The notes beneath the pieces are model-generated. The model was not told the DNA's origin, searched no databases, and saw only the letters and a program-made list of their open reading frames with translations. Below, piece by piece: positions 93 to 43,658 of a stretch of 64,000 nt of DNA (position 1 is the stretch's first letter; every line of letters starts with the position of its first letter). The stretch spans positions 67,351,028 through 67,415,027 of the forward strand of contig NC_046358.1 of assembly GCF_004027225.2 (NCBI RefSeq), read 5' to 3'. Source of the stretch: Strigops habroptila (lineage: Eukaryota; Chordata; Aves; Psittaciformes; Psittacidae). Position numbers and translations under genes: made by a program.

Positions 93-684
93 GTATGAAG
101 CAGACAGACTGTGGTCCCTTATGCTGCCTGAATGCTGATGCCAAAACAAAGTTTCTTTTGAAATCAGAGCCATGGCCCAGACTGTCACGCAACTGCCAAC
201 AGGATCTATCTGCTCTGTGAGAAATTGGAGTGCTATGGTACAGAGGCACAGCTAAGGGAGATACCTGACAAAGAAAACACTTCTAACATTGCATTTTAAA
301 GCTTACAAACATGCTCTAATAAACCAGCTACAAGAATTCAGCGTTGCAAGTGTTTTTTCTCCACTTGCTAAGTCTACTTCCTCTAGTAGGGACGATGCAG
401 AATCTAAACAAGCTCATTCTTGGGATTCTGCAGTAGCTGCATTTTCAATGACATTTGCATAGTTGTCTCACTAAGTGAACCTGTTACAGGTCTCATTGTC
501 ACCACTGCAACTAACTATACAGTGAGGAAAGCACAACCTGTTCCTTATCTAGCCACATTTTTCAATTAAGACACACAGTTAGTTGTGTCATCTAGAATAT
601 GCCTTCAGAACATGAATCCAAACTTTCAGGAAAAATTCTCCTCCTGTACCAAACCATTAATAAGTTTTTAAAATTCTAAACATT
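93..684. other. Unassigned DNA
   Basis: AT-rich sequence between two CR1 copies. I see no coding region, RNA gene or recognisable repeat in it. Confidence 0.5.
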
Positions 685-31120: not shown

Positions 31121-31313
31121 GAGAATGGATTTAAACTTAAACAGGGGAGGTTCAGGTCAGATATAAGGAAGAAGTTCTTCTCTGTGAGGGTAGTGAGGTG
31201 CTGGCACAGGTTGCCCAGAGAAGCTGTGGCTGCCCCAACCCTGACAGTGTTCAAGGCCAGCTTGGATGAGGCTTGGATCAATTTGGTCGAGTGGAAGGTC
31301 TCCCTGCCAATGG
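31121..31313 (+). repeat. CR1 LINE fragment, plus strand
   Basis: Sense CR1 from 'gagaatggatttaaacttaa' through 'ggttgcccagagaagctgtg' to 'gtggaaggtctccctgccaa'. Its 3' tail is missing; it breaks off where an opposite-strand CR1 begins. Confidence 0.9.
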
Positions 31314-31593: not shown

Positions 31594-31722
31594 ACCACCT
31601 GACAATGCAGCAGTCACAATGCTCTGAGAAAGGATAAAAGGAAGCAGCCTCCTGTGTGCCCTGGCAGAGATGGCCCAGGGCAGCCCAGGACTTCCCAGAG
31701 GAAGTCCTTGAGGAGCTGCTGG

Positions 31723-31773
31723 AGTTACTTGTTTGGAGGTTCTAGGAGGAGTTACTTGTTTGGAGGTTCTAGC
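31723..31773. repeat. 24-bp tandem duplication
   Basis: The unit gagttacttgtttggaggtt plus ctag occurs twice in succession, separated by 2-3 bases. Confidence 0.85.
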
Positions 31774-32439
31774 AGGGGAGCGCAGCTGCTGTATGCCTGT
31801 GACTGACGAATGGTACTGCCTGTATCGGGGAAGGTCGCCCTCTTTGACTGAGCATGCAGCTTTGGGAGGGATGCATGTGGAGCGGTGAGGGAGGAAGGAG
31901 ACATGCACCTAGCCAGCCAGATCAGCCGAATCAACCCTAGCAATCAATAGGGTGACAGACGTCGCAGCCATATCGTCCTCATGTGCAAGCACAGCTAGAA
32001 GTTGACTAGAGTAGAGGTTCAGAGTTCTCCACTGCAAGGCCAGCTCCTGGCAGGACCAGGTTCTTAGCTTGTCGAAGGGATAGCAATCCTTTTCAGCTGG
32101 ATAGTCATGGCCAAATTATAGGAATGGCCTTTTGAGGAGCACTGCGGAGCTCACCATTCTCATCCCCCACGGAGCCAGGGGCAGCAGTCATAAGCAGCAG
32201 GATACAGGGATGTTTCCAGGGATGTTTCCAGTGCTTTGGAGCAGCCACTGATGCCCTGCAGTGGTAGGAAGGATTCTTGCCCCCAGGGTCGATCAGGCCG
32301 GGGGCCTTTGGCCACTCTCGGCAGCCCCTGAGGTGGCTTCAGGTTGAGGGACAATAGGGCTTGGGCATCTCCGGGGAGGCGTGACCAGCCTGTGGACGAG
32401 GAGCAGGTCTTGCTCACATGCTCAGGGATAGCCGATTGC
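31774..32439. other. GC-rich unassigned repeat-like DNA
   Basis: A compositionally distinct GC-rich stretch between the CR1 pair and the tandem units. It has a 13-bp direct duplication 'cagggatgtttcc' near 32206-32232. Several long open frames on both strands are expected from the GC content and show no recognised domain. Confidence 0.4.
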
Positions 32440-33205: not shown

Positions 33206-33318
33206 TTCCACTTGTAAGCTTTGTGATTTGTGTCCTTGAAAGTGTTTTTGGAGCTGAAAAGCCCTGGCATTGGAGGTGAATAACATTGCCATTGTTATTC
33301 AGCTCAGGGTGACTGTAG

Positions 33319-33598
33319 GGAATGGGATGGGATGGGATGGGATGGGATGGGATGGGATGGGATGGGATGGGATGGGATGGGGTGGGATGGGAAGGGATGG
33401 GGTAGGAAGGGATGGGATGGGATGGAGTGGGATGGAAAGGGATGGGAAGGGACGGGAGGGGTTGGGGTGGGATGGGACGGGATGAGATGGAATGGATTGG
33501 CATGGAATCAAATGGAAGGGAATGGAGAATCATATAGAATGGAATGGAATGGAATGGAATGGAATGGAATGGAATGGAATGGAACGGAACAGAACATA
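33319..33598. repeat. Pentamer satellite array, (GGGAT)n grading into (GGAAT)n
   Basis: Perfect GGGAT units from about 33323 to 33380 are followed by mutated units (GGGGT, GGAAG, GGAGT) and then by nine perfect GGAAT units at about 33538-33582. This indicates two homogenised sub-arrays joined by a degenerate zone. Both strands are open for long stretches because the 5-bp period avoids stops; these frames are not genes. Confidence 0.95.
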
Positions 33599-34286: not shown

Positions 34287-34446
34287 TGGGGAGATTTAGA
34301 TTAGACATTAGGAAGCAATTCTTCCCTGTGAGGGTGGTGAGACACTGGCACAAGTTGCCCAGAGAAGTTGTGGCTGCCCCATCCCTGACAGTGTTCAAGG
34401 CCAGGATGGACGGGACTTGGAGCAACCCGGTCTAGTGGAAGGTGTC
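34287..34446 (+). repeat. CR1 LINE fragment, 5' part, split by the provirus
   Basis: Sense CR1 ('ttagacattaggaagcaatt', 'agttgcccagagaagttgtg', 'ggtctagtggaaggtgtc') that stops exactly at the proviral 5' LTR and resumes at 41665 with 'gtgtccctgccaagggctgg'. Removing the provirus and one 5-bp duplication gives a continuous CR1. Confidence 0.95.
34442..34446. other. Target-site duplication, left copy (GTGTC)
   Basis: The five bases GTGTC directly before the 5' LTR are repeated directly after the 3' LTR at 41665-41669. Confidence 0.9.
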
Positions 34447-35012
34447 TGTCCTGGGTTCAGCTACAGCAGTCATTTTTCTCCTTCTTAGTAGCTGGTGCAG
34501 TGCTGTGTTTTTTAACTTTCAGCCTGGGAACAACGCTGATAACACTGATGTTTTCAGTTATTGCTAAGTAATGTTTACTCCAACCAACGACTTTCTCAGT
34601 CTCATGCTTTGCCACGGAGGAGGGGAAGCCGGGAGGAAACAGAGACAGGACACCTGACCCAAACTAGCCAAAGAGGTATTCCATACCACAGCATGTCATG
34701 CCCAGTATATAAACCGGGGGGAGTTACCCGGAAGGCCAGATCACTGCTCGGGTCGGGCTGGGTATTGGTCAGCGGGTGGTGAGCAATTGTATCCTCTCCC
34801 CTTGTTATTTCACTAATCATTATTATAACTGGTGGTAGCAGTAGTGGTTTTGTGTTATACATTAGTTGCAGGACTGCTCTTATCTCAATGCGTGGGAGTT
34901 ACATTCTTCCGATTCTCCTCCCCATCCCTCCTGGAGCTGGGGGAGGAAGAAGGGGGGGAGTGAGCGAGTCTCTGCGTGGTTCTGAGTTACCGGCTGGGCT
35001 CAAACCATGACA
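34447..35012 (+). repeat. Proviral 5' LTR
   Basis: 566 bp, starting TGTCCTGGGTTCAG and ending AACCATGACA, so the termini are TGTC...GACA. A TATA box (TATATAA) lies at 34706-34712, which would place U3 upstream and the transcription start about 25-30 bp downstream. I see no clean AATAAA signal. It is the same length as the 3' LTR. Confidence 0.95.
34706..34712 (+). promoter_or_regulatory. LTR TATA box
   Basis: TATATAA followed by a G-rich run, conserved in the family-A LTRs of the window (for example near 8787 and at 41358). This is the expected core promoter of the provirus. Confidence 0.75.
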
Positions 35013-35020
35013 GTTCTTTG

Positions 35021-35038
35021 TGGCACCAAACGTGGGGC
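35021..35038 (+). other. Primer-binding site, tRNA-Lys-like
   Basis: TGGCACCAAACGTGGGGC, 8 nt after the 5' LTR. It resembles the complement of the 3' end of the lysine tRNA (CUU type) used by many class II retroviruses, with two apparent mismatches. The match continues for a few bases (tcgaa). Confidence 0.8.
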
Positions 35039-35858
35039 TCGAAGGGTTGAAATAACAACAGATCTGACTGGAGTGTGTCTAATCATATTTTTGATAAGCA
35101 TTCATTGTTACTACTCGTCACAATGGTGATTATTTGCCTCTCAGACTTGCTGCGCTTGATCTCAGAGTTTCAGCTTGATCTCAGAGTTTCCTTACTTACA
35201 GCTACTATTTACTGTTTTAGTGTTTATCGACTGGGGGGCCTGGGCTAAGGTTCTTCTTTCACTGTACTTCATGGTAATGACTTGTAATACAGTAGACTCA
35301 TTGATCGTGAAACTGGTCTGGTTTGTGCTTCCAGCGTGGCCATCACCTCTGTACTTTGGGAGGTATATAATGAAATATTTTAGCAATTGCATATCTTTTT
35401 TTTTCTCCTCGGGGGGTTAACTTACGAAGGAGGCATTCTCTTCCATCTCCCGTTCCCCCACCAGCCTATTTGCAACAGCATTTGAGATTTCTGAAGGTTA
35501 GATGGCCTTTGAATACCCTTGAAACCTGCCTGCTGATTGTGCTGGGGATCAGCATGTTGGCAAACATACGGAGTGTGTTTTACCCATGGCCATCCTGCCC
35601 TGGGAACACCCTATTTCGTCTGATCTCGAAAGTTAAGCAGTATTGGGTTCGAATCTGGTCTAGGATTAGACGACGATATAGGAGGACCACCAAGAGATTT
35701 TCCCTGAGGCTGGACAGTCATGAGTGGCAGGGTGTGTGGGATAGTATGGGCAAGTATCTAGGCCAGTGGGCCTCTCCAGTGCTTTGGAACTTCGCCACTG
35801 AACAAGTGCAACATCCAAGGTGTGCTGTCGTCCTGCTTATAGCAGAGAGGGACAAATC
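35039..35858 (+). other. Proviral leader, about 820 nt
   Basis: The region between the primer site and the first gag-frame ATG is unusually long. It contains a 17-bp direct repeat (gcttgatctcagagttt at 35154-35170 and 35173-35189), a small ATG-initiated frame of 41 codons (35123-35248), the 5S-rRNA-like segment at 35588-35647, and an open frame from 35374 that runs into gag in another phase. A packaging signal and splice donor are expected here but I cannot place them. Confidence 0.7.
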
Positions 35859-36012
35859 ATGGCAACGTGCTGGGGCTTGGCCTATGCCTACAGAGCCCTG
35901 CTCAACACCATCCAGCACCTTCAAAGGGAAAAAAATGTCTCTGGATCTGATGGCAAAGCAACAGACAATGCAGCTATACCAACTACAAGCACAGCAGCTA
36001 CTCAAACCCTGA
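35374..36012 (+). CDS. Leader open frame: hydrophobic segment plus arginine-rich patch, overlaps gag
   Basis: A frame open from 35374 to the TGA at 36010-36012 (about 212 codons); the first ATG is at 35554, giving 152 residues. Before that ATG the frame reads a hydrophobic stretch (CLLIVLGISMLANI) typical of a membrane segment or signal anchor. After it comes a strongly basic run (SRIRRRYRRTTKRF) resembling arginine-rich RNA-binding or nuclear-localisation motifs, then a tryptophan-rich part and a glutamine-rich end (KQQTMQLYQLQAQQ). The last 154 nt overlap gag in the +1 phase relative to gag. Possibilities: a separate accessory ORF, an N-terminal Gag part cut off by a frameshift, or chance. 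I recognise no family. The 5S-like segment lies inside it and contributes residues just upstream of the basic run. Confidence 0.35.
   Translation, partial: NILAIAYLFFSPRGVNLRRRHSLPSPVPPPAYLQQHLRFLKVRWPLNTLETCLLIVLGISMLANIRSVFYPWPSCPGNTLFRLISKVKQYWVRIWSRIRRRYRRTTKRFSLRLDSHEWQGVWDSMGKYLGQWASPVLWNFATEQVQHPRCAVVLLIAERDKSWQRAGAWPMPTEPCSTPSSTFKGKKMSLDLMAKQQTMQLYQLQAQQLLKP
35588..35647 (+). other. 5S rRNA-like segment inside the proviral leader
   Basis: About 60 nt align with nucleotides 7-66 of vertebrate 5S rRNA: GGCCAT, CCCTG, AAC and CCC blocks in order, then 35609-35647 matches 5S at 32 of 39 positions, including an uninterrupted TCGTCTGATCTCG, followed by AAG(T/C)TAAGCAG, which is the 5S box A. 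Several of the mismatches are C-to-T or G-to-A. The bases just after (GGTTCGAATC, 35646-35655) also look like a tRNA B box, which may be chance. It is not a functional 5S gene: the 3' half (intermediate element, box C) is not convincingly present. Confidence 0.75.
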
Positions 36013-37484
36013 CCACAACAGACAACGCAGCTACTCCAAGTACAGCAGCTACATCAACCCCAGTGACAAGCACAACAGCTACTCAAACCCTGACCACAAC
36101 AGACAACGCAACTACTCCAACTTCAAATACAGCAGCTACACCAACCCCAGAGACAAGCACAGCAGCTACTCAAACCCCAACAGCAACAGTCAATGCAGCT
36201 GGCGGTGTTACTCAACCCCCAATCACAACAGCTGCACCAACCCCAGCAACAGACACTGCAGCCACTCCAATCCTAGTGGCAGACACTGCAGTCACTCCAA
36301 CCACAGTGACAAACACTGCAGCTAAACCAAATGGCCAGTTTGTGACAATGTCTGTTGCCCCTGTAAGCAAAAGCAAACGAGAGGCACAAAGAGCAACCAG
36401 TGAAGCGAAGAAAGATGAAGACCCAATGTCATTACTACACGGAACAGCATTTGAACAAGAGTTACTACTACGTGGGTCAGAGGAAGAGGAAGAAGAAGAA
36501 GAGGTGACCTCTCGACCCTGGAAATCCACCGAGCTGCGGAATATGCGAAAAGATTTCACCCATCTTCCAGGGGAGCACAATGTCACCTGGTTGCTCCGAT
36601 GCTGGGACAATGGGGCCGACGGTCACAAACTAGAAGGCAAGGAAGCCAAGCAGCTGGGATCACTTGCTAGGGAAGGAGGAATTGACAAAGCGATTGCAAG
36701 AGAGAAGCGGGCCCTCAGCCTTTGGAGGTGGCTCTTGGCAGCTGTGAAAGAAAGGTTTCCCTACAAAGACGATATTATGAGTCGCTCAGCCAACTGGTCC
36801 ACGCTAGAGAAAGGCATCCAGTCCCTGAGGGAATCAGCCATTCTAGAGATGATCTATCGTAGGCCGGATGCCAGGAACACATCCGTAGATCCAGATGAAG
36901 TCGAATGCACAAGACCGATGCGGCAGAAACTTACACGGAGTGCACCATTATGATATGCCCACACATTGGCATCAAGGACCTGGAATGACGGAGTATCACC
37001 AACAATGGATTACCTGATTCATCAACTCCAAGAGTTCGAAGACAATCTTACCCCTTCCATCATTTCAGCTGTGGAAAAATTGTCCCAGGAGTTCAAACAA
37101 TTGAGAGACGGTTTATCCGATCTATCCAGCTCCCCACACATACCAACACATGTCTCAGCTATTAACAGAAGGCGCCCTACTGCTCAAGAAAGAAAATATA
37201 GGAGGTACACGCCACGGGCCACCCTATGGTTTTACTTGCGGGATCACGGAGAAGACATGAGAAAGTGGGATGGAAAACCAACCTCAGTTCTGGAGCAACA
37301 GGTGCGTGAACTGAAGAGGAGAGCAATGGTCATGGATGATCCTCCAATGAAAGCTGCTGCTCCAGTCTCTGGTGAGCAGTTTCCCAGATGGAGTGGAAGA
37401 GCTGATTTTACTCCTGCTCCTGTGATAAGGAATACTAATCCCTTTCTACAAGACAGAAGCGGAGAATCTTGTGATCACTATTAG
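35859..37484 (+). pseudogene. gag: Retroviral gag, one internal stop
   Basis: The gag-position frame starts at the ATG 35859 (MATCWGLAYAYRALLN; an upstream in-frame TGA lies at 35799) and ends at TAG 37482-37484, 541 codons, with one internal stop TGA at 36951. Residues about 30-155 are a low-complexity Thr/Ala/Pro repeat (units like TDNAATP, TSTAATQTP). An acidic run of eight Glu follows at about residue 210. The remainder (VTWLLRCWDNGADG, LSLWRWLLAAVKERFP, DPDEVECTRPM) is compact and probably the capsid region. After the stop, the frame continues without shift (FEDNLTPSIISAVEKLSQEF, a likely coiled coil; TLWFYLRDHGEDMRKWDGKP). I see no CCHC zinc knuckle, unlike most orthoretroviral Gags. 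Assignment rests on position and on the linked pol. Confidence 0.8.
36951..36953 (+). other. Internal stop (TGA) in gag
   Basis: The only break in the gag frame. Downstream codons continue in the same phase with Gag-like composition, so this is a point nonsense change and not a frameshift. Confidence 0.85.
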
Positions 37485-37512
37485 AGGGGCCCTGCCTCCA
37501 GCCAGGTGGAGG
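37482..37512 (+). promoter_or_regulatory. gag-pol junction: in-frame TAG followed by a GC-rich hairpin
   Basis: Gag ends in TAG at 37482-37484 and pol continues in the same frame. Ten nt after the stop, CCTCCA (37495-37500) can pair perfectly with TGGAGG (37507-37512) across a 6-nt loop, and the intervening bases are G/C-rich (ggggccc). This layout resembles the stop-codon readthrough signal of gammaretroviruses (UAG plus a nearby downstream structure) more than a -1 frameshift site. No slippery heptamer was needed or seen. Confidence 0.5.
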
Positions 37513-40500
37513 AGAGGGATAATCAGGTTTACTGGACTGTGTGGATCAGATGGCCTGGCGCATCAGTCCCACAGAAGTATAAGGTTCTAGTAGATACCAG
37601 TGCACAGTGTACCCTGATGCCGTCAAGGTATCAAGGGGTGAAACCCATTTATATTTCTGGAGTGACAGGAGGATCCCAACAGTTAACTGTACTGGAAGCT
37701 GAAATCAGCCTGACTGGGAGAAAGTGGCAAAAGCGCCCCATTGTGACTGGTCCAGGGGCTCCATGCATCCTTGGCACAGACTATCTCAGAAGAGGGTACT
37801 TCAAAGACCCAAAAGGGTATAGATGGGCTTTTGGTATCGCTGCCTTGGAAACAGAGGAAATTAAGCAGCTGTCCACCTTGTCCGGTCTCTCAGAGGATCC
37901 TTCTGTTGTGGGGTTGCTGAAGGTCAAAGAACAACAAGTGCCAATTGCGACCACAACAGCGCACCGGCGGCAATATCACACCAACCGAGACTCCTTGATT
38001 CCCATCCAGAAGCTGATCCGTAGACTGGAGAGCCAAGGAGTGATCAGCAGGACCCGCTCACCCTTTAATAGCCCCATATGGCCAGTGCAAAAGTCTAATG
38101 GAGAGTGGAGACTAACAGTAGACTATCGTGGCCTGAACGAAGTCACACCGCCATTGAGTGCTGCCGTACCGGACATGCTAGAACTTCACTAAGAACTGGA
38201 GTCAAAGGCAGCCAAGTGATATGCCACAATTGATATTGCCAATGTGTTTTTCTCAATCCCTTTGGCAGCAGAATGCAGGCCACAGTTTGGTTCCACTTGG
38301 AGAGGCATCCAGTACACTTGGAACCGAGTGCCCCAGGGGTGGAAACACAGCCCTACCATCTGCCATGGATTGATCCAGACTGTACTGGAACAGGGGCAAG
38401 CTCCAGAACACCTGCAATACATTGATGATATCATCGTGTGGGGTGATACAGGGGAAGAAGTTTTTGAGAAAGGGAGGAAGATAATCCAAATCCTGCTGAA
38501 GGCCGGTTTTGCCATAAAACGGAATAAGGTCAAGGAACCTGCACAGGATATTCAATTTTTGGGAATAAAATGGCAAGATGGACGCTGCCAGATCCCCACA
38601 AACGTGATCAACAGGATAACAGCAATGTCTCCACCAACTAACAAGAAAGAAACACAAGCTTTCTTAGGTGTTGTGGGGTTCTGGAGAATGCACATCCCAA
38701 ATTACAGTTGGATTGTAAGCCCTCTCTACCACGTGACCCGGAAGAAGAATGATTTCAAATGGGGCCCTGAGCAACAACAAGCCTTTGAACAAATTAAATG
38801 AGAAACAGTTCATGCAGTAGCCTTTGGACCAGCCTAGGCCAGGCCAGATGTGAATAATGTGCTCTATACTGCAGCCAGGGACAATGGTCCTACCTGGAGC
38901 CTCTGGCAGAAAGCTCCAGGGGAGACTCGAGGTCGGCCCCTTGGCTTTTGGAGTCGGGGATATAAAGGATCCAAGGCCAGCTATACTCCCACTGAAAAAG
39001 AGATACTGGCAGCCTACGAAGGGGTTCGAGCTGCCTCAGAAGTGATTGGCACTGAAGCACAGCTTTTCCTGGCACCGCGGTTGCCTGTGCTGTGCCGGAT
39101 GTTCAAAGGCAGGGTCTCTGCTATCCATCATGCAACTGATGCTACATGGAGTAAGTGGGCCGCACTAATTACACAACGAGCTTGAATAGGAAATCCCAGT
39201 CGTCCAGGAATTCTAGAAGTCATCATGGACTGGCCAGAGGGCAAAGATTTTGGGATGTCACCAAAAGAGGAGGTGACGCGTGCTGAAGAGGCCCCACCAT
39301 ATAATGAACTGCCAGAGAGTGAAAAGCAATATGCCTTGTTTACTGATGGGTCCTGCTGTATGGTGGGAAAGCATCGGAGATGGAAGGCAGCTGTGTGGAG
39401 TCCCCTGCAACAAGTTGCAGAAACTGCTGAAGGAGAGGGTGAATCGAGTCAGTTTGCAGAGGTGAAAGCCATCCAGCTGGCCTTGGACATTGCTGAACAA
39501 GAGAAATGGCCAGTACTTTATCTCTATACTGACTCATGGATGGTGGCAAATGCCCTGTGGGGGTGGTTGCAGCAATGGAAGCAGAGCAACTGGCAACGCA
39601 GAAATAAACCCATCTGGGCTGCTGCATTGTGGCAAGATATCGCTGCTCGGGTGCAGAACCTGGTGGTGAAGGTACGCCACGTAGATGCTCATGTACCCAA
39701 GGGTCGGGCCACTGAGGAACACCAAAACAACCAGCAAGTGGATAAAGCTGCTAAGATTGAAGTGGCTCAGATGGACTTAGATTGGCAACATAAGGGTGAA
39801 TTATTTTTAACCCGGTGGGCCCATGACACCTCAGGCCATCAAGGCAGAGATGCAACATATAGATGGGCTCGTGACCGAGGGGTGGACTTAACAATGGACA
39901 CTATTGCCCAGGTTATTCACGAATGTGAAACATGTGCTGCAATTAAGAAAGCCAAGTGGTTAAAGCCTCTCTGGTATGGAAGACAATGGCTGAAGTACAA
40001 GTATGGGGAGGCCTGGCAGATTGACTATATCACACTCCCACCAACCCGCCGAGGCAAGTGCTATGTGCTTACCATGGTGGAAGCAACCACCGGCTGGCTG
40101 GAAACATATGCTGTGCCCCACGCCACTGCCCGGAATACTGTCCTGGGCCTTGAGAAACAAGTTTTGTGGCAACACGGCACCCCAGAGAGAACTGAGTCAG
40201 ACAATGGGACTCATTTCCGGAACAACCTCATAGACACTTGGGCCAAAGAGCATGGCATTGAGTGGGTATATCACATCCCCTACCATGCACCAGCCTCTGG
40301 GAAAATCAAACGGTACAATGGGCTGTTAAAAACTACACTGAGAGCAATGGGTGGTGGGACTTTCAAACACTGGGATACACATTTACCAAAAGCCACCTCG
40401 TTGGTCAACACGAGGGGATCTGCCAACAGGGCTGGCCCAGCCCAATCAGAACTTCTACGTACTGTAGAGGGGGATAAAGATCCTGTGGTGCACATAAAGA

Positions 40501-40670
40501 GTTTGTTGGGGAAGATAGTCTGGGTTATTCCTGCTTCAGGTAAAGGCAAACCCACTCGTGGGGTTGCTTTTGCTCAGGGACCTGGATATACTTGGTGGGT
40601 AATGTGGGAAGATGGGGAAGTCCAATGTGTACCTCAAGGGGATTTGATTTTGGGGGAAAACAGCCAATGA
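37485..40670 (+). pseudogene. pol: Retroviral pro-pol, in one frame, five internal stops
   Basis: 1,062 codons in the same phase as gag. Protease: VDTSAQC with the catalytic Asp at 37593 (usual DTG is DTS here) and ILGTDYLRR near 37770. Reverse transcriptase: IWPVQKSNGEWRLTVDYRGL, first catalytic Asp in TIDIANVFF at 38232, and the YIDD box at 38418-38429. Connection and RNase H: FTDGSC (Asp at 39345), a Glu in SQFAEVKA, LYTDSW, and VRHVDAH. Integrase: zinc-binding His/His (AHDTSGH) and CETC, then catalytic Asp at 40023 (WQIDYI) and at 40200 (ESDNGTHF); the third acidic residue, 35 positions on, is lysine (AAA at 40308). A tryptophan-rich C-terminal domain ends at LILGENSQ. Stops: TAA 38190, TGA 38217, TGA 38799, TAG 38835, TGA 39183. 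There is no dUTPase domain. The copy cannot make an active enzyme. Confidence 0.95.
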
Positions 40671-41098
40671 ACTCAATTGTGTGCTGTTGCCTGCTCTATA
40701 GCACTCTTATAGCCCACCAGCAAGATATCTTTAGGTCACCAGCAACTGACCCTGACTTCCCTCTGATCATCACCTCAACAAAGAATGAATTTTGAGGAAA
40801 CCAGACGAGCTCAGCAGTGACCAGACGAGTTTGGCGGTGTCATCAGCAGGCAACAACCCAACACTACACACTGTCCCTCCTGCCCTGAAAGACTGTTACA
40901 AGAGATGGAGCCTGACGTCATGGAGTAGATGAATTCAGCAGTTTTACAGGGATTGGTCCATGGACTAGGGAATGATATATTTCTCTTTGTGTGTGGGTGT
41001 GGGTGTATATATGTGTATATATGGGACAGGGACGATGGTGTGTTGAGAGATGTGGGATCTGAGCATGACATGAATGGTATGGAATAAGGGGTGGATAC
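40671..41098 (+). other. Proviral 3' non-coding region with polypurine tract, no env
   Basis: 428 nt from the pol stop to the 3' LTR without an envelope-like frame. It contains a 9-bp direct repeat (accagacga near 40801 and 40820), a GT/TA-rich patch at 40988-41022, and a purine-rich candidate priming tract ending just before the LTR (ggaataaggggtggata, about 41081-41097). Confidence 0.75.
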
Positions 41099-41664
41099 TG
41101 TCCTGGGTTCAGCTATAGCAGTCATTTTTCTCCTTCTTAGTAGCTGGTGCAGTGCTGTGTTTTTTAACTTTCAGCCTGGGAATAACGCTGATAACACCAA
41201 TGTTTTCAGTTATTGCTAAGTAATGTTTACTCCAACCAAGGACTTTCTCAGTCTCATGCTTTGCCACGGAGGAGGGGAAGCCGGGAGGAAACAGAGACAG
41301 GACACCTGACCCAAACTAGCCAAAGGGATATTCCATACCACAGCACGTCATGCCCAATATATAAACCGGGGGGAGTTACCCGGAAGGCCAGATCACTGCT
41401 TGGGTTGGGCTGGGTGTCGGTCAGCGGCTGGTGAGCAATTGTATCCTCTCCCCTTGTCATTTCACTAATCATTATTATCATTGGTGGTAGCAGTAGTGGT
41501 TTTGTGTTATAGGTTAGTTGCGGGACTGCTCTTATCTCAACCCGCGGGAGTTACATTCTTCTGATTCTCCTTCCCATCCCTCCTGGAGTGGGGGGAGGAA
41601 GTAGGAGGGGAGTGAGTGAGCGGCTGCGTGGTTCCAAGTTACCGGCTGGGCTCAAACCACGACA
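41099..41664 (+). repeat. Proviral 3' LTR
   Basis: 566 bp, starting TGTCCTGGGTTCAG and ending AACCACGACA. It aligns without gaps to the 5' LTR, with about 36 substitutions by hand count. The TATA box lies at 41358-41364. Confidence 0.95.
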
Positions 41665-41749
41665 GTGTCCCTGCCAAGGGCTGGGGGGTTGGAACTGGAC
41701 AAGCTTTAAGGTCCTTTCCAACTCCAACCTTGATTTTATGATTCTATAG
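41665..41749 (+). repeat. CR1 LINE 3' end, split by the provirus
   Basis: Continuation of the CR1 interrupted at 34446: it begins with the duplicated GTGTC (41665-41669), then 'cctgccaagggctggggggt', 'aagctttaaggtcctttcca' and the octamer-like end 'ttatgattctatag'. Confidence 0.93.
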
Positions 41750-42583: not shown

Positions 42584-42858
42584 ATCATAGAATCATAGAA
42601 TAGTTAGGGTTGGAAAGGACCTTAAAGTCATCTAGTTCCAACCCCCCTGCCATGGGCAAGAACACCTCACACTAAACCACGTCACCCAAGATTCCGCCCA
42701 ACTTGGCCTTGAACACTGCTGGGGATGGAGCATTCGCAACTTCCTTGGGCAACCCATCCCAGTGCCTCATCACCCTCACAGTAGAGAACTTCTTCCTTAT
42801 ATCTAACCTAAACTTCCCCTGTTTAAGTTTGAACTCATTACACCTTGTCCTATCACTT
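42584..42858 (-). repeat. CR1 LINE 3' fragment
   Basis: Antisense CR1 starting at its 3' octamers (aatcatagaatcatagaata), then 'ggttggaaaggaccttaaag', 'ttggccttgaacactgctgg' and 'acttcttccttatatctaac', truncated near 'ccttgtcctatcactt'. Confidence 0.95.
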
Positions 42859-43397: not shown

Positions 43398-43658
43398 GAC
43401 AAGAGGTAATGGGTTTAAACTTAAACATGGGAAGTTCAGGTTAGACATAAGGAAAAAATTCTTTACTGTGAGGATAGTGAGGCAGTGGAAGAGGTTGCCC
43501 ATAGAAGTGGTAAATGCTCCATCTCTGGCAATGTTCGAGGCCAGATTGGACGGGTCTTGGAGCAAACTGGTGTCCCTGCCCATGGCAGGGGGTTGGAACT
43601 GGGTGAGCTTTAAGGTCCCTTCCAACCCAAAGCAGTCTGTGACTCTGTGGTTCCATGA
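43398..43658 (+). repeat. CR1 LINE 3' fragment
   Basis: Sense CR1 from 'gacaagaggtaatgggttta' through 'gttgcccatagaagtggtaa' to a degraded 3' end (ctctgtggttccatga). A short segment is deleted between 'gagcaaactgg' and 'tgtccctgcc'. Confidence 0.93.

What the first reader, a model, noticed from the sequence alone, without database searches (positions are those of the whole stretch)
35588..35647. 5S ribosomal RNA-like segment captured in a retroviral leader
About 60 nt between the LTR and gag align in order with nucleotides 7-66 of 5S rRNA. The core 35609-35647 matches at 32 of 39 positions by hand count, with a 13-nt exact run (TCGTCTGATCTCG) and the box A word TAAGCAG. Chance is very unlikely. 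Retroviruses are known to package host Pol III RNAs, so capture of 5S rRNA by template switching during reverse transcription is a plausible origin (inference). If present in all family members, it may have been kept for packaging, translation or trafficking. I know of no described ERV leader with a 5S-derived part.
Basis: partly seen in the sequence, partly recalled or inferred. Interest (0 to 1): 0.82.

Follow-up and report, generated by a model that had tools for sequence, protein, structure and literature searches.

The report
Ribosomal RNA piece inside retroviral gag
A bird retrovirus fixed in its host's genome carries the first 71 letters of the host's 5S ribosomal RNA inside its first protein-coding frame, where they would be read as amino acids, and the captured piece has been copied to many hundreds of places.

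Summary
Other copies come closer, up to 63 of 71. It is not in a leader. In 12 of 30 young loci the frame is open from an ATG 151 codons upstream and through the segment. It is a net in-frame insertion of 78 nt (26 codons): 71 from 5S plus 7 that look like an imperfect target duplication. The same genome holds the empty site: 30 loci found with a 5S-less query show no 5S score, and in 22 the joined site is read directly. With the insert left out, 26 filled and 17 empty copies separate with none misplaced (support 0.776), so one capture is likely. 983 places hold the core word at up to 3 mismatches, real 5S genes included. Best reading: one template switch onto packaged 5S rRNA, which became part of the gag-position protein and then diverged. 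I found no sign that the RNA fold is protected. Translation and function of the peptide are unproven.

The parts
34442..34446 (.). target-site duplication GTGTC, left copy
   Evidence: GTGTC before the LTR and again at 41665-41669 after it
34447..35012 (+). 5' LTR (TG...CA)
   Evidence: 533 of 569 aligned positions identical to the 3' LTR, no gaps; ends placed by the 5-bp duplication
35021..35043 (+). primer-binding-site-like stretch just inside the LTR
   Evidence: read by eye; the tRNA was not identified
35123..35574 (+). 5' part of the gag-position frame; in this copy broken by frameshifts (the reading passes through three frames)
   Evidence: one search compared with P0008 and with loci whose frame is open from an ATG 151 codons before the insert
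35575..35581 (+). about 7 extra nt left of the 5S piece, probably an imperfect second copy of target sequence; exact extent uncertain
   Evidence: net insertion 78 nt against 71 nt of 5S; compare empty sites
35582..35652 (+). 5S rRNA-derived segment, 5S nt 1-71, in frame, part of a 26-codon net insertion
   Evidence: 53 of 71 identical to own 5S; 0 of 5000 shuffles; empty sites in the same genome
35653..36012 (+). continuation of the same open frame after the insert
   Evidence: frame 35374-36012 open; right junction
35802..37484 (+). remaining gag-position coding sequence, in pieces in this copy
   Evidence: open frames 35802-36953 and 36954-37484; no Pfam gag domain, so 'gag' is by position
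37485..40670 (+). protease/pol: reverse transcriptase, RNase H, integrase, in pieces in this copy
   Evidence: RVT_1 9.3e-18, RNase_H 3.6e-20, rve 1.8e-17; aspartyl protease only weak, E 0.069; integrase stretch nearest to foamy-virus integrase among solved structures
41099..41664 (+). 3' LTR
41665..41669 (.). target-site duplication GTGTC, right copy

Best explanation
In an ancestor of this class-III-like avian retrovirus, reverse transcriptase copying the genomic RNA left it inside the gag-position frame, jumped onto a co-packaged host 5S rRNA at about nt 71, copied it to its 5' end (nt 1), ran off, and rejoined the genomic RNA about 7 nt 3' of where it had left, so that about 7 nt were copied twice. 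The product, 71 + 7 = 78 nt, keeps the frame and opens no stop, so 26 new residues, mostly the arbitrary reading of 5S rRNA, were added just after a hydrophobic segment of the N-terminal region. That lineage then spread to many hundreds of copies while the inserted codons moved away from 5S. Shown: 5S origin, empty and filled sites, frame, one clade (moderate support). Inferred: the jump, its direction, translation, and any use of the peptide.
For: 5S origin: 53 of 71 in the window, 0 of 5000 shuffles; 44 to 63 of 71 over 87 ungapped copies of 90; four of five copies close to 5S score 31.4-36.8 bits for Rfam 5S, all under the cut-off of 38, the fifth not listed. Empty site: 30 of 30 loci found with the 5S-less P0128 score only 8-13 against 5S; joined site read in 22 of the 30. 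Length: 60 nt between two fixed words in 6 of 6 empty loci that hold both, 138 nt in every filled locus that holds both (26 young, 9 older; one also shows a second pair of words): net 78 nt. Frame: of 90 filled loci (87 distinct), 87 have 71 nt, one has 6 nt less, two identical ones have 73; 12 of 30 young loci are open from an ATG 151 codons upstream through the insert. Protein level: own 5S read from nt 3 is LRPYHPENARSRLISEAKQGRAR.. without a stop, and the Guaruba protein P0018 has PWPHHPENTRSCPISEAKQGQAQ. Of 138 collected proteins 15 carry the piece, 14 of them named and from parrots; 97 show the 5S-less site, by word filter and reading. One event: 26 filled against 17 empty, none misplaced, support 0.776. 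Mechanism: the piece starts at 5S nt 1 and ends inside the RNA, without a tail; retroviral particles carry 5S rRNA, and a 7SL recombinant is on record (passages of PMC4997597 and PMC5086612).
Against: The 7 extra nt could equally be a short target-site duplication of a retroposed insert. The left copy of the duplication is degenerate, so its length is uncertain, and the Guaruba-type copy L085 is 9 nt shorter there. Tree support is moderate and the root was set by midpoint. Filled loci were found with queries that bear the piece and empty loci with a query that lacks it, so their proportions mean nothing and open frames are favoured. No expression data: translation is inferred from the frame.
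Confidence: 0.68

Rival explanations
1. The 5S fragment was inserted into a resident provirus by a LINE's reverse transcriptase (as for 5S pseudogenes or SINEs), with a 7-8 bp target-site duplication, and that provirus later became the active master.
For: Net insert is 71 + 7 nt with a duplication-like left flank. Dispersed 5S copies exist in this genome: the 47 matches lie on several contigs; 12 were read, three of them from contig C8, which holds the array.
Against: Target-primed copying starts at the RNA's 3' end (recalled); here nt 72-119 are missing and the 5' end is kept, with no tail seen. The 5S matches listed all span model positions 1-120, unlike this piece.
Confidence: 0.25
2. The segment is kept as an RNA element (packaging, Pol III transcription, binding of 5S-binding proteins), not as protein.
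For: It contains the helix II-helix III arm and the box A word. Copies at about 53 of 71 identity keep on average 10.4 of 15 pairs where random change gives 9.2.
Against: At about 45 of 71 the copies keep 7.3 against 7.7 expected, and at about 61 of 71, 11.7 against 11.1; the random model did not favour transitions, which would raise its numbers. Box C is not captured. The length differs from 71 by multiples of 3 in 88 of 90 loci, as coding requires, though the loci were partly chosen by protein match.
Confidence: 0.05
3. Chance resemblance, or convergence of a coding stretch to 5S.
For: The window's Rfam score is below the family cut-off (23.9 of 38 bits), as are those of the closest copies tested.
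Against: 0 of 5000 shuffles; other copies reach 63 of 71; the segment is an insertion that begins at the 5' end of 5S.
Confidence: 0.005
4. The 5S-bearing form is ancestral and the 5S-less copies lost it by deletion.
For: The root of the tree was set by midpoint only.
Against: In that rooting the filled clade lies inside the empty copies; 97 of 138 proteins, among them the stork protein P0108, show the 5S-less site (most come from metagenome contigs of unknown host); the empty sites join without 5S remains.
Confidence: 0.015

Closest known systems
Cassandra (plants) and Ajax (nemerteans): small LTR retrotransposons with 5S rRNA sequence
   Same: An LTR retroelement family that carries 5S rRNA sequence and has multiplied with it (passages of PMC10886601; starts of abstracts in the listing).
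   Different: There the 5S piece lies in the LTRs of small non-autonomous elements and is read as a Pol III promoter (box A, IE and box C in Ajax). Here it lies in a coding frame of a pol-bearing element and covers nt 1-71 only.
Laboratory retroviral recombinants with 7SL RNA, and oncogene-transducing retroviruses
   Same: Host RNA patched into a retroviral genome by template switching (passages of PMC4997597; the 7SL paper itself is not held).
   Different: Those named in the passages are an experimental recombinant and transduced genes; this is a non-coding RNA piece spread through an endogenous family, in a coding frame.
SINE3 / 5S-headed SINEs
   Same: Retroelements with sequence from 5S rRNA.
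   Different: The piece stops at nt 71 and is flanked by gag-position sequence on both sides, no tail seen.
Avian ERVL-like (class III, foamy-virus-like) endogenous retroviruses
   Same: LTR pair, 5-bp duplication, pol with RT, RNase H and integrase nearest foamy-virus integrase.
   Different: Carries the 5S-derived insertion; the primer tRNA was not identified.

Membership tests
Class III (ERVL/spuma-like) endogenous retrovirus | paired LTRs with short target duplication and a pol gene | tested here: met
   LTRs 533 of 569 identical, GTGTC on both sides, RT/RNase H/integrase
Class III (ERVL/spuma-like) endogenous retrovirus | pol nearest to spuma/ERVL | tested here: inconclusive
   best solved-structure match of the integrase stretch is foamy-virus integrase, E 1.8e-14; no tree of pol was made
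Class III (ERVL/spuma-like) endogenous retrovirus | tRNA-Leu primer site (recalled) | not tested
   stretch at 35021 read by eye only
Cassandra/Ajax type (small LTR element with 5S promoter) | 5S sequence in the LTRs | tested here: not met
   segment is internal, 35582-35652; LTRs are 34447-35012 and 41099-41664
Cassandra/Ajax type (small LTR element with 5S promoter) | box A, IE and box C kept | tested here: not met
   match ends at nt 71; the part beyond is no better than shuffles
SINE3 | 5S head followed by a LINE-derived tail | tested here: not met
   gag-position sequence resumes directly after nt 71
5S rRNA gene or full pseudogene | full-length 5S above the Rfam cut-off | tested here: not met
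   23.9 bits against 38; nt 1-71 only
Host-RNA recombinant retrovirus | host RNA sequence joined into viral sequence in a lineage that multiplied | tested here: met
   empty and filled sites, one clade, 983 places with the core word
Host-RNA recombinant retrovirus | made by template switching during reverse transcription | not testable with these tools
   inferred from the junctions

The most novel reading that the evidence does not exclude
A stretch of ribosomal RNA became a working part of a retroviral gag-position protein: the 26 new residues after the hydrophobic segment changed membrane or host interaction, were reshaped by selection (22 replacement to 4 silent shared variants in the insert against 30 to 16 among singletons), and helped the 5S-bearing lineage expand in parrots. 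Against it: the right flank shows the same pattern (12 to 0 against 20 to 8), so the excess is not special to the insert.
Probability: 0.2. Interest if true: 0.87.

Novelty: new variant of a known kind. Interest (0 to 1): 0.72.

Why it matters
Retroviral particles are known to hold 5S rRNA and other Pol III RNAs, yet lasting genetic traces of that are rare to my knowledge, and those I found in print put 5S in LTRs as a promoter. Here the empty site, the filled site, the host template and a graded series of copies lie in one genome, so the capture can be dated, its junctions read, and the fate of a coding sequence born from ribosomal RNA followed.

Tried and rejected
Chance, leader element, SINE insertion, conserved RNA fold and a full-length 5S match were each tested and set aside. 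My first count of the insertion (27 codons, 81 nt, in the notes) was wrong; the distance between fixed words gives 78 nt. Purifying selection on the insert was looked for and not seen (83 of 90 loci used; codons with more than one change, 25 in the insert, and variants in 2-3 loci, 9 replacement and 3 silent, are outside the quoted ratios; copies are not independent). P0082 and P0099 were labelled 5S-bearing by my word filter; as printed they are not, and I moved them, with P0134, to the 5S-less group. L056 was labelled from a second hit in the same locus and left out of the tree; one search shows an empty site there. IMG/VR holds no exact match of a 25-base core word. PADLOC and ARAGORN gave nothing.

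Literature: nine searches of the held open-access library. No title or abstract start that was listed, and none of the passages read, describes 5S rRNA in a coding region of an endogenous retrovirus; most listed papers were not opened, and most subscription journals and all bioRxiv preprints are outside the library.

Full report
What is there. The window belongs to a genome of 1.15 Gb; the nearest named relatives of the gag-position frame are parrot proteins, so the host is probably a parrot (inference). The provirus runs from 34447 to 41664: LTRs of 566 nt flanked by GTGTC on both sides, 533 of 569 aligned LTR positions identical, a primer-site-like stretch at 35021, a gag-position region without a Pfam gag match, and pol with reverse transcriptase, RNase H and integrase; the integrase stretch is closest to foamy-virus integrase among solved structures. 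About 430 nt separate pol from the 3' LTR, too little for an env. This copy is broken: its gag-position reading passes through three frames and pol is in pieces. The LTR difference of 6.3% suggests an insertion of the order of 15 million years ago if birds mutate at about 2e-9 per site and year (rate recalled).

The 5S match. Own-genome 5S (L001-L008, identical over 119 nt) aligns without gaps to 35582-35652, 53 of 71. Shuffles never come near (0 of 5000). The part beyond nt 71 is not supported when taken alone.

It is coding by position. In 12 of the 30 loci fetched the frame is open from an ATG 151 codons upstream and through the segment; in a thirteenth (L026) it is open up to the segment and stops there. 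The same start is visible at 35123 in the window and in the protein P0008. Own 5S read from nt 3 has no stop before its last codons.

Empty and filled sites. A search of the same genome with the 5S-less protein P0128 gave 249 matches (142 candidates scored of 4059). All 30 loci fetched from it score 8 to 13 against 5S; the joined site was read directly in 22 of them. Many of the other matches begin at about residue 118 of P0128, where the insertion would split the alignment; these were not classed. A DNA search with the window segment gave 40 of 40 scored matches over its full length (2150 candidates), and a search with the Guaruba protein P0018 gave 154 matches (87 scored of 4703 candidates), from which 60 stretches were fetched. 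Thirty loci of the first and these 60 make 90, of which 87 are distinct; 5S scores are 19 or more. 87 have 71 nt, one has a 6-nt in-frame deletion, two identical ones have 73. Four of 90 have a stop in the segment. Both sets were chosen by similarity, so they overstate intactness and their sizes are not frequencies.

Junctions. Empty, L048: ttgttgaatatggttcaggtcttgtctaaggttaaacaactatttaag. Filled, L078: ttgctgaatatgctctttttgtttt, then 5S nt 1-71, then gtcttgtctaaggttaaacaactatttaag. The net insertion is 78 nt. L078 and L080 begin with G1 of 5S; most others shown have A there. The 7 extra nt look like an imperfect second copy of the target word gtcttgt; they differ among copies, and L085 is 9 nt shorter there, so this is not settled. 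At the right junction 5S and the empty site share a few letters (GG..TC.GG), by eye.

Graded series and single origin. Identity to 5S runs from 44 to 63 of 71, median 53. In a tree of about 200 nt with the insert left out (26 of the 90 filled loci, 17 of the 30 empty ones), filled and empty copies separate with none misplaced, support 0.776. Several of the copies closest to 5S (L083, L078-L080, L085) branch deepest among the filled ones and the young ones sit at the tip; L086, also 61 of 71, branches later. Six of six copies shown share G at 5S nt 23 where the array gene has A, which fits one template.

Spread. 138 proteins were collected (one search listed 120 of 188 hits). Fourteen named ones carry the segment, from five parrot genera (Lathamus 4, Pezoporus 3, Neopsephotus 2, Amazona 4, Guaruba 1; orders checked), plus the unnamed P0008. 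The Lathamus, Pezoporus, Neopsephotus and Amazona proteins have a further deletion of some 7 residues inside it. 97 show the 5S-less site, among them the stork protein P0108; most of these come from metagenome contigs of unknown host. Six begin after the site and 20 lack the anchor word. The core word occurs at 983 places at up to 3 mismatches, against 1 for the reversed control; real 5S genes differ from it at 2 letters, so most of the 47 should be among them. Of the first 100 places listed (all exact; the list stops in contig C26), 75 lie on the 37-Mb contig C25, which may be the W chromosome (inference; the W is called an ERV refuge in the title of PMC8310711, listing).

How it works. The fold is not visibly protected: own 5S forms 14 of 15 pairs of the helix II-III arm, 87 copies form 7 to 13, close to what random change gives. 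The inserted codons changed mostly by replacement: young copies typically differ from the 5S reading by 16 replacement and 2 silent changes where about 2 to 1 is expected; the copy closest to 5S, L083, has 4 and 4. Variants shared by four or more loci are 22 to 4 in the insert against 30 to 16 for singletons, but the right flank does the same (12 to 0 against 20 to 8; left flank 4 to 2 against 18 to 10). So there is no sign of purifying selection, and a weak one of fast change over the whole stretch. The insert sits just after a hydrophobic segment (residues 126-153 of P0008, 25-55 of P0018). I take the likeliest course to be: accidental capture that kept the frame; a tolerated linker; drift or reshaping of the peptide; spread with a successful lineage.

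Known kinds. Cassandra and Ajax carry 5S in LTRs as a promoter (listing, passages). Retroviral particles contain 5S rRNA and host-RNA recombinants are on record (passages). A captured 5S piece in a gag-position frame was not seen in the nine searches made.

Noticed in passing
window 31687-31986 (-): 7SK RNA match over the whole model, 166.9 bits, about 2.5 kb upstream of the provirus; gene or pseudogene not decided.
   Followed up: no
window 479-604 (-): SNORA1 snoRNA match, 86 bits.
   Followed up: no
window 33274-33555: Array of about 10-nt spaced repeats upstream of the provirus.
   Followed up: no
window 31144-31302, 34288-34446, 42694-42852, 43428-43586: A dispersed repeat of about 160 nt in both orientations; the provirus sits next to one copy.
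   Followed up: no
window 35952-36296: Coding repeat of 81-nt units in the gag-position region, four copies, threonine/alanine-rich in one frame.
   Followed up: no
L076, L088: Copies whose insert has drifted far from 5S (5S score 21, 45 of 71 for L076) and whose reading resembles P0008.
   Followed up: partly
G000 contig C25 (37.4 Mb): 75 of the first 100 exact core matches listed lie here.
   Followed up: no
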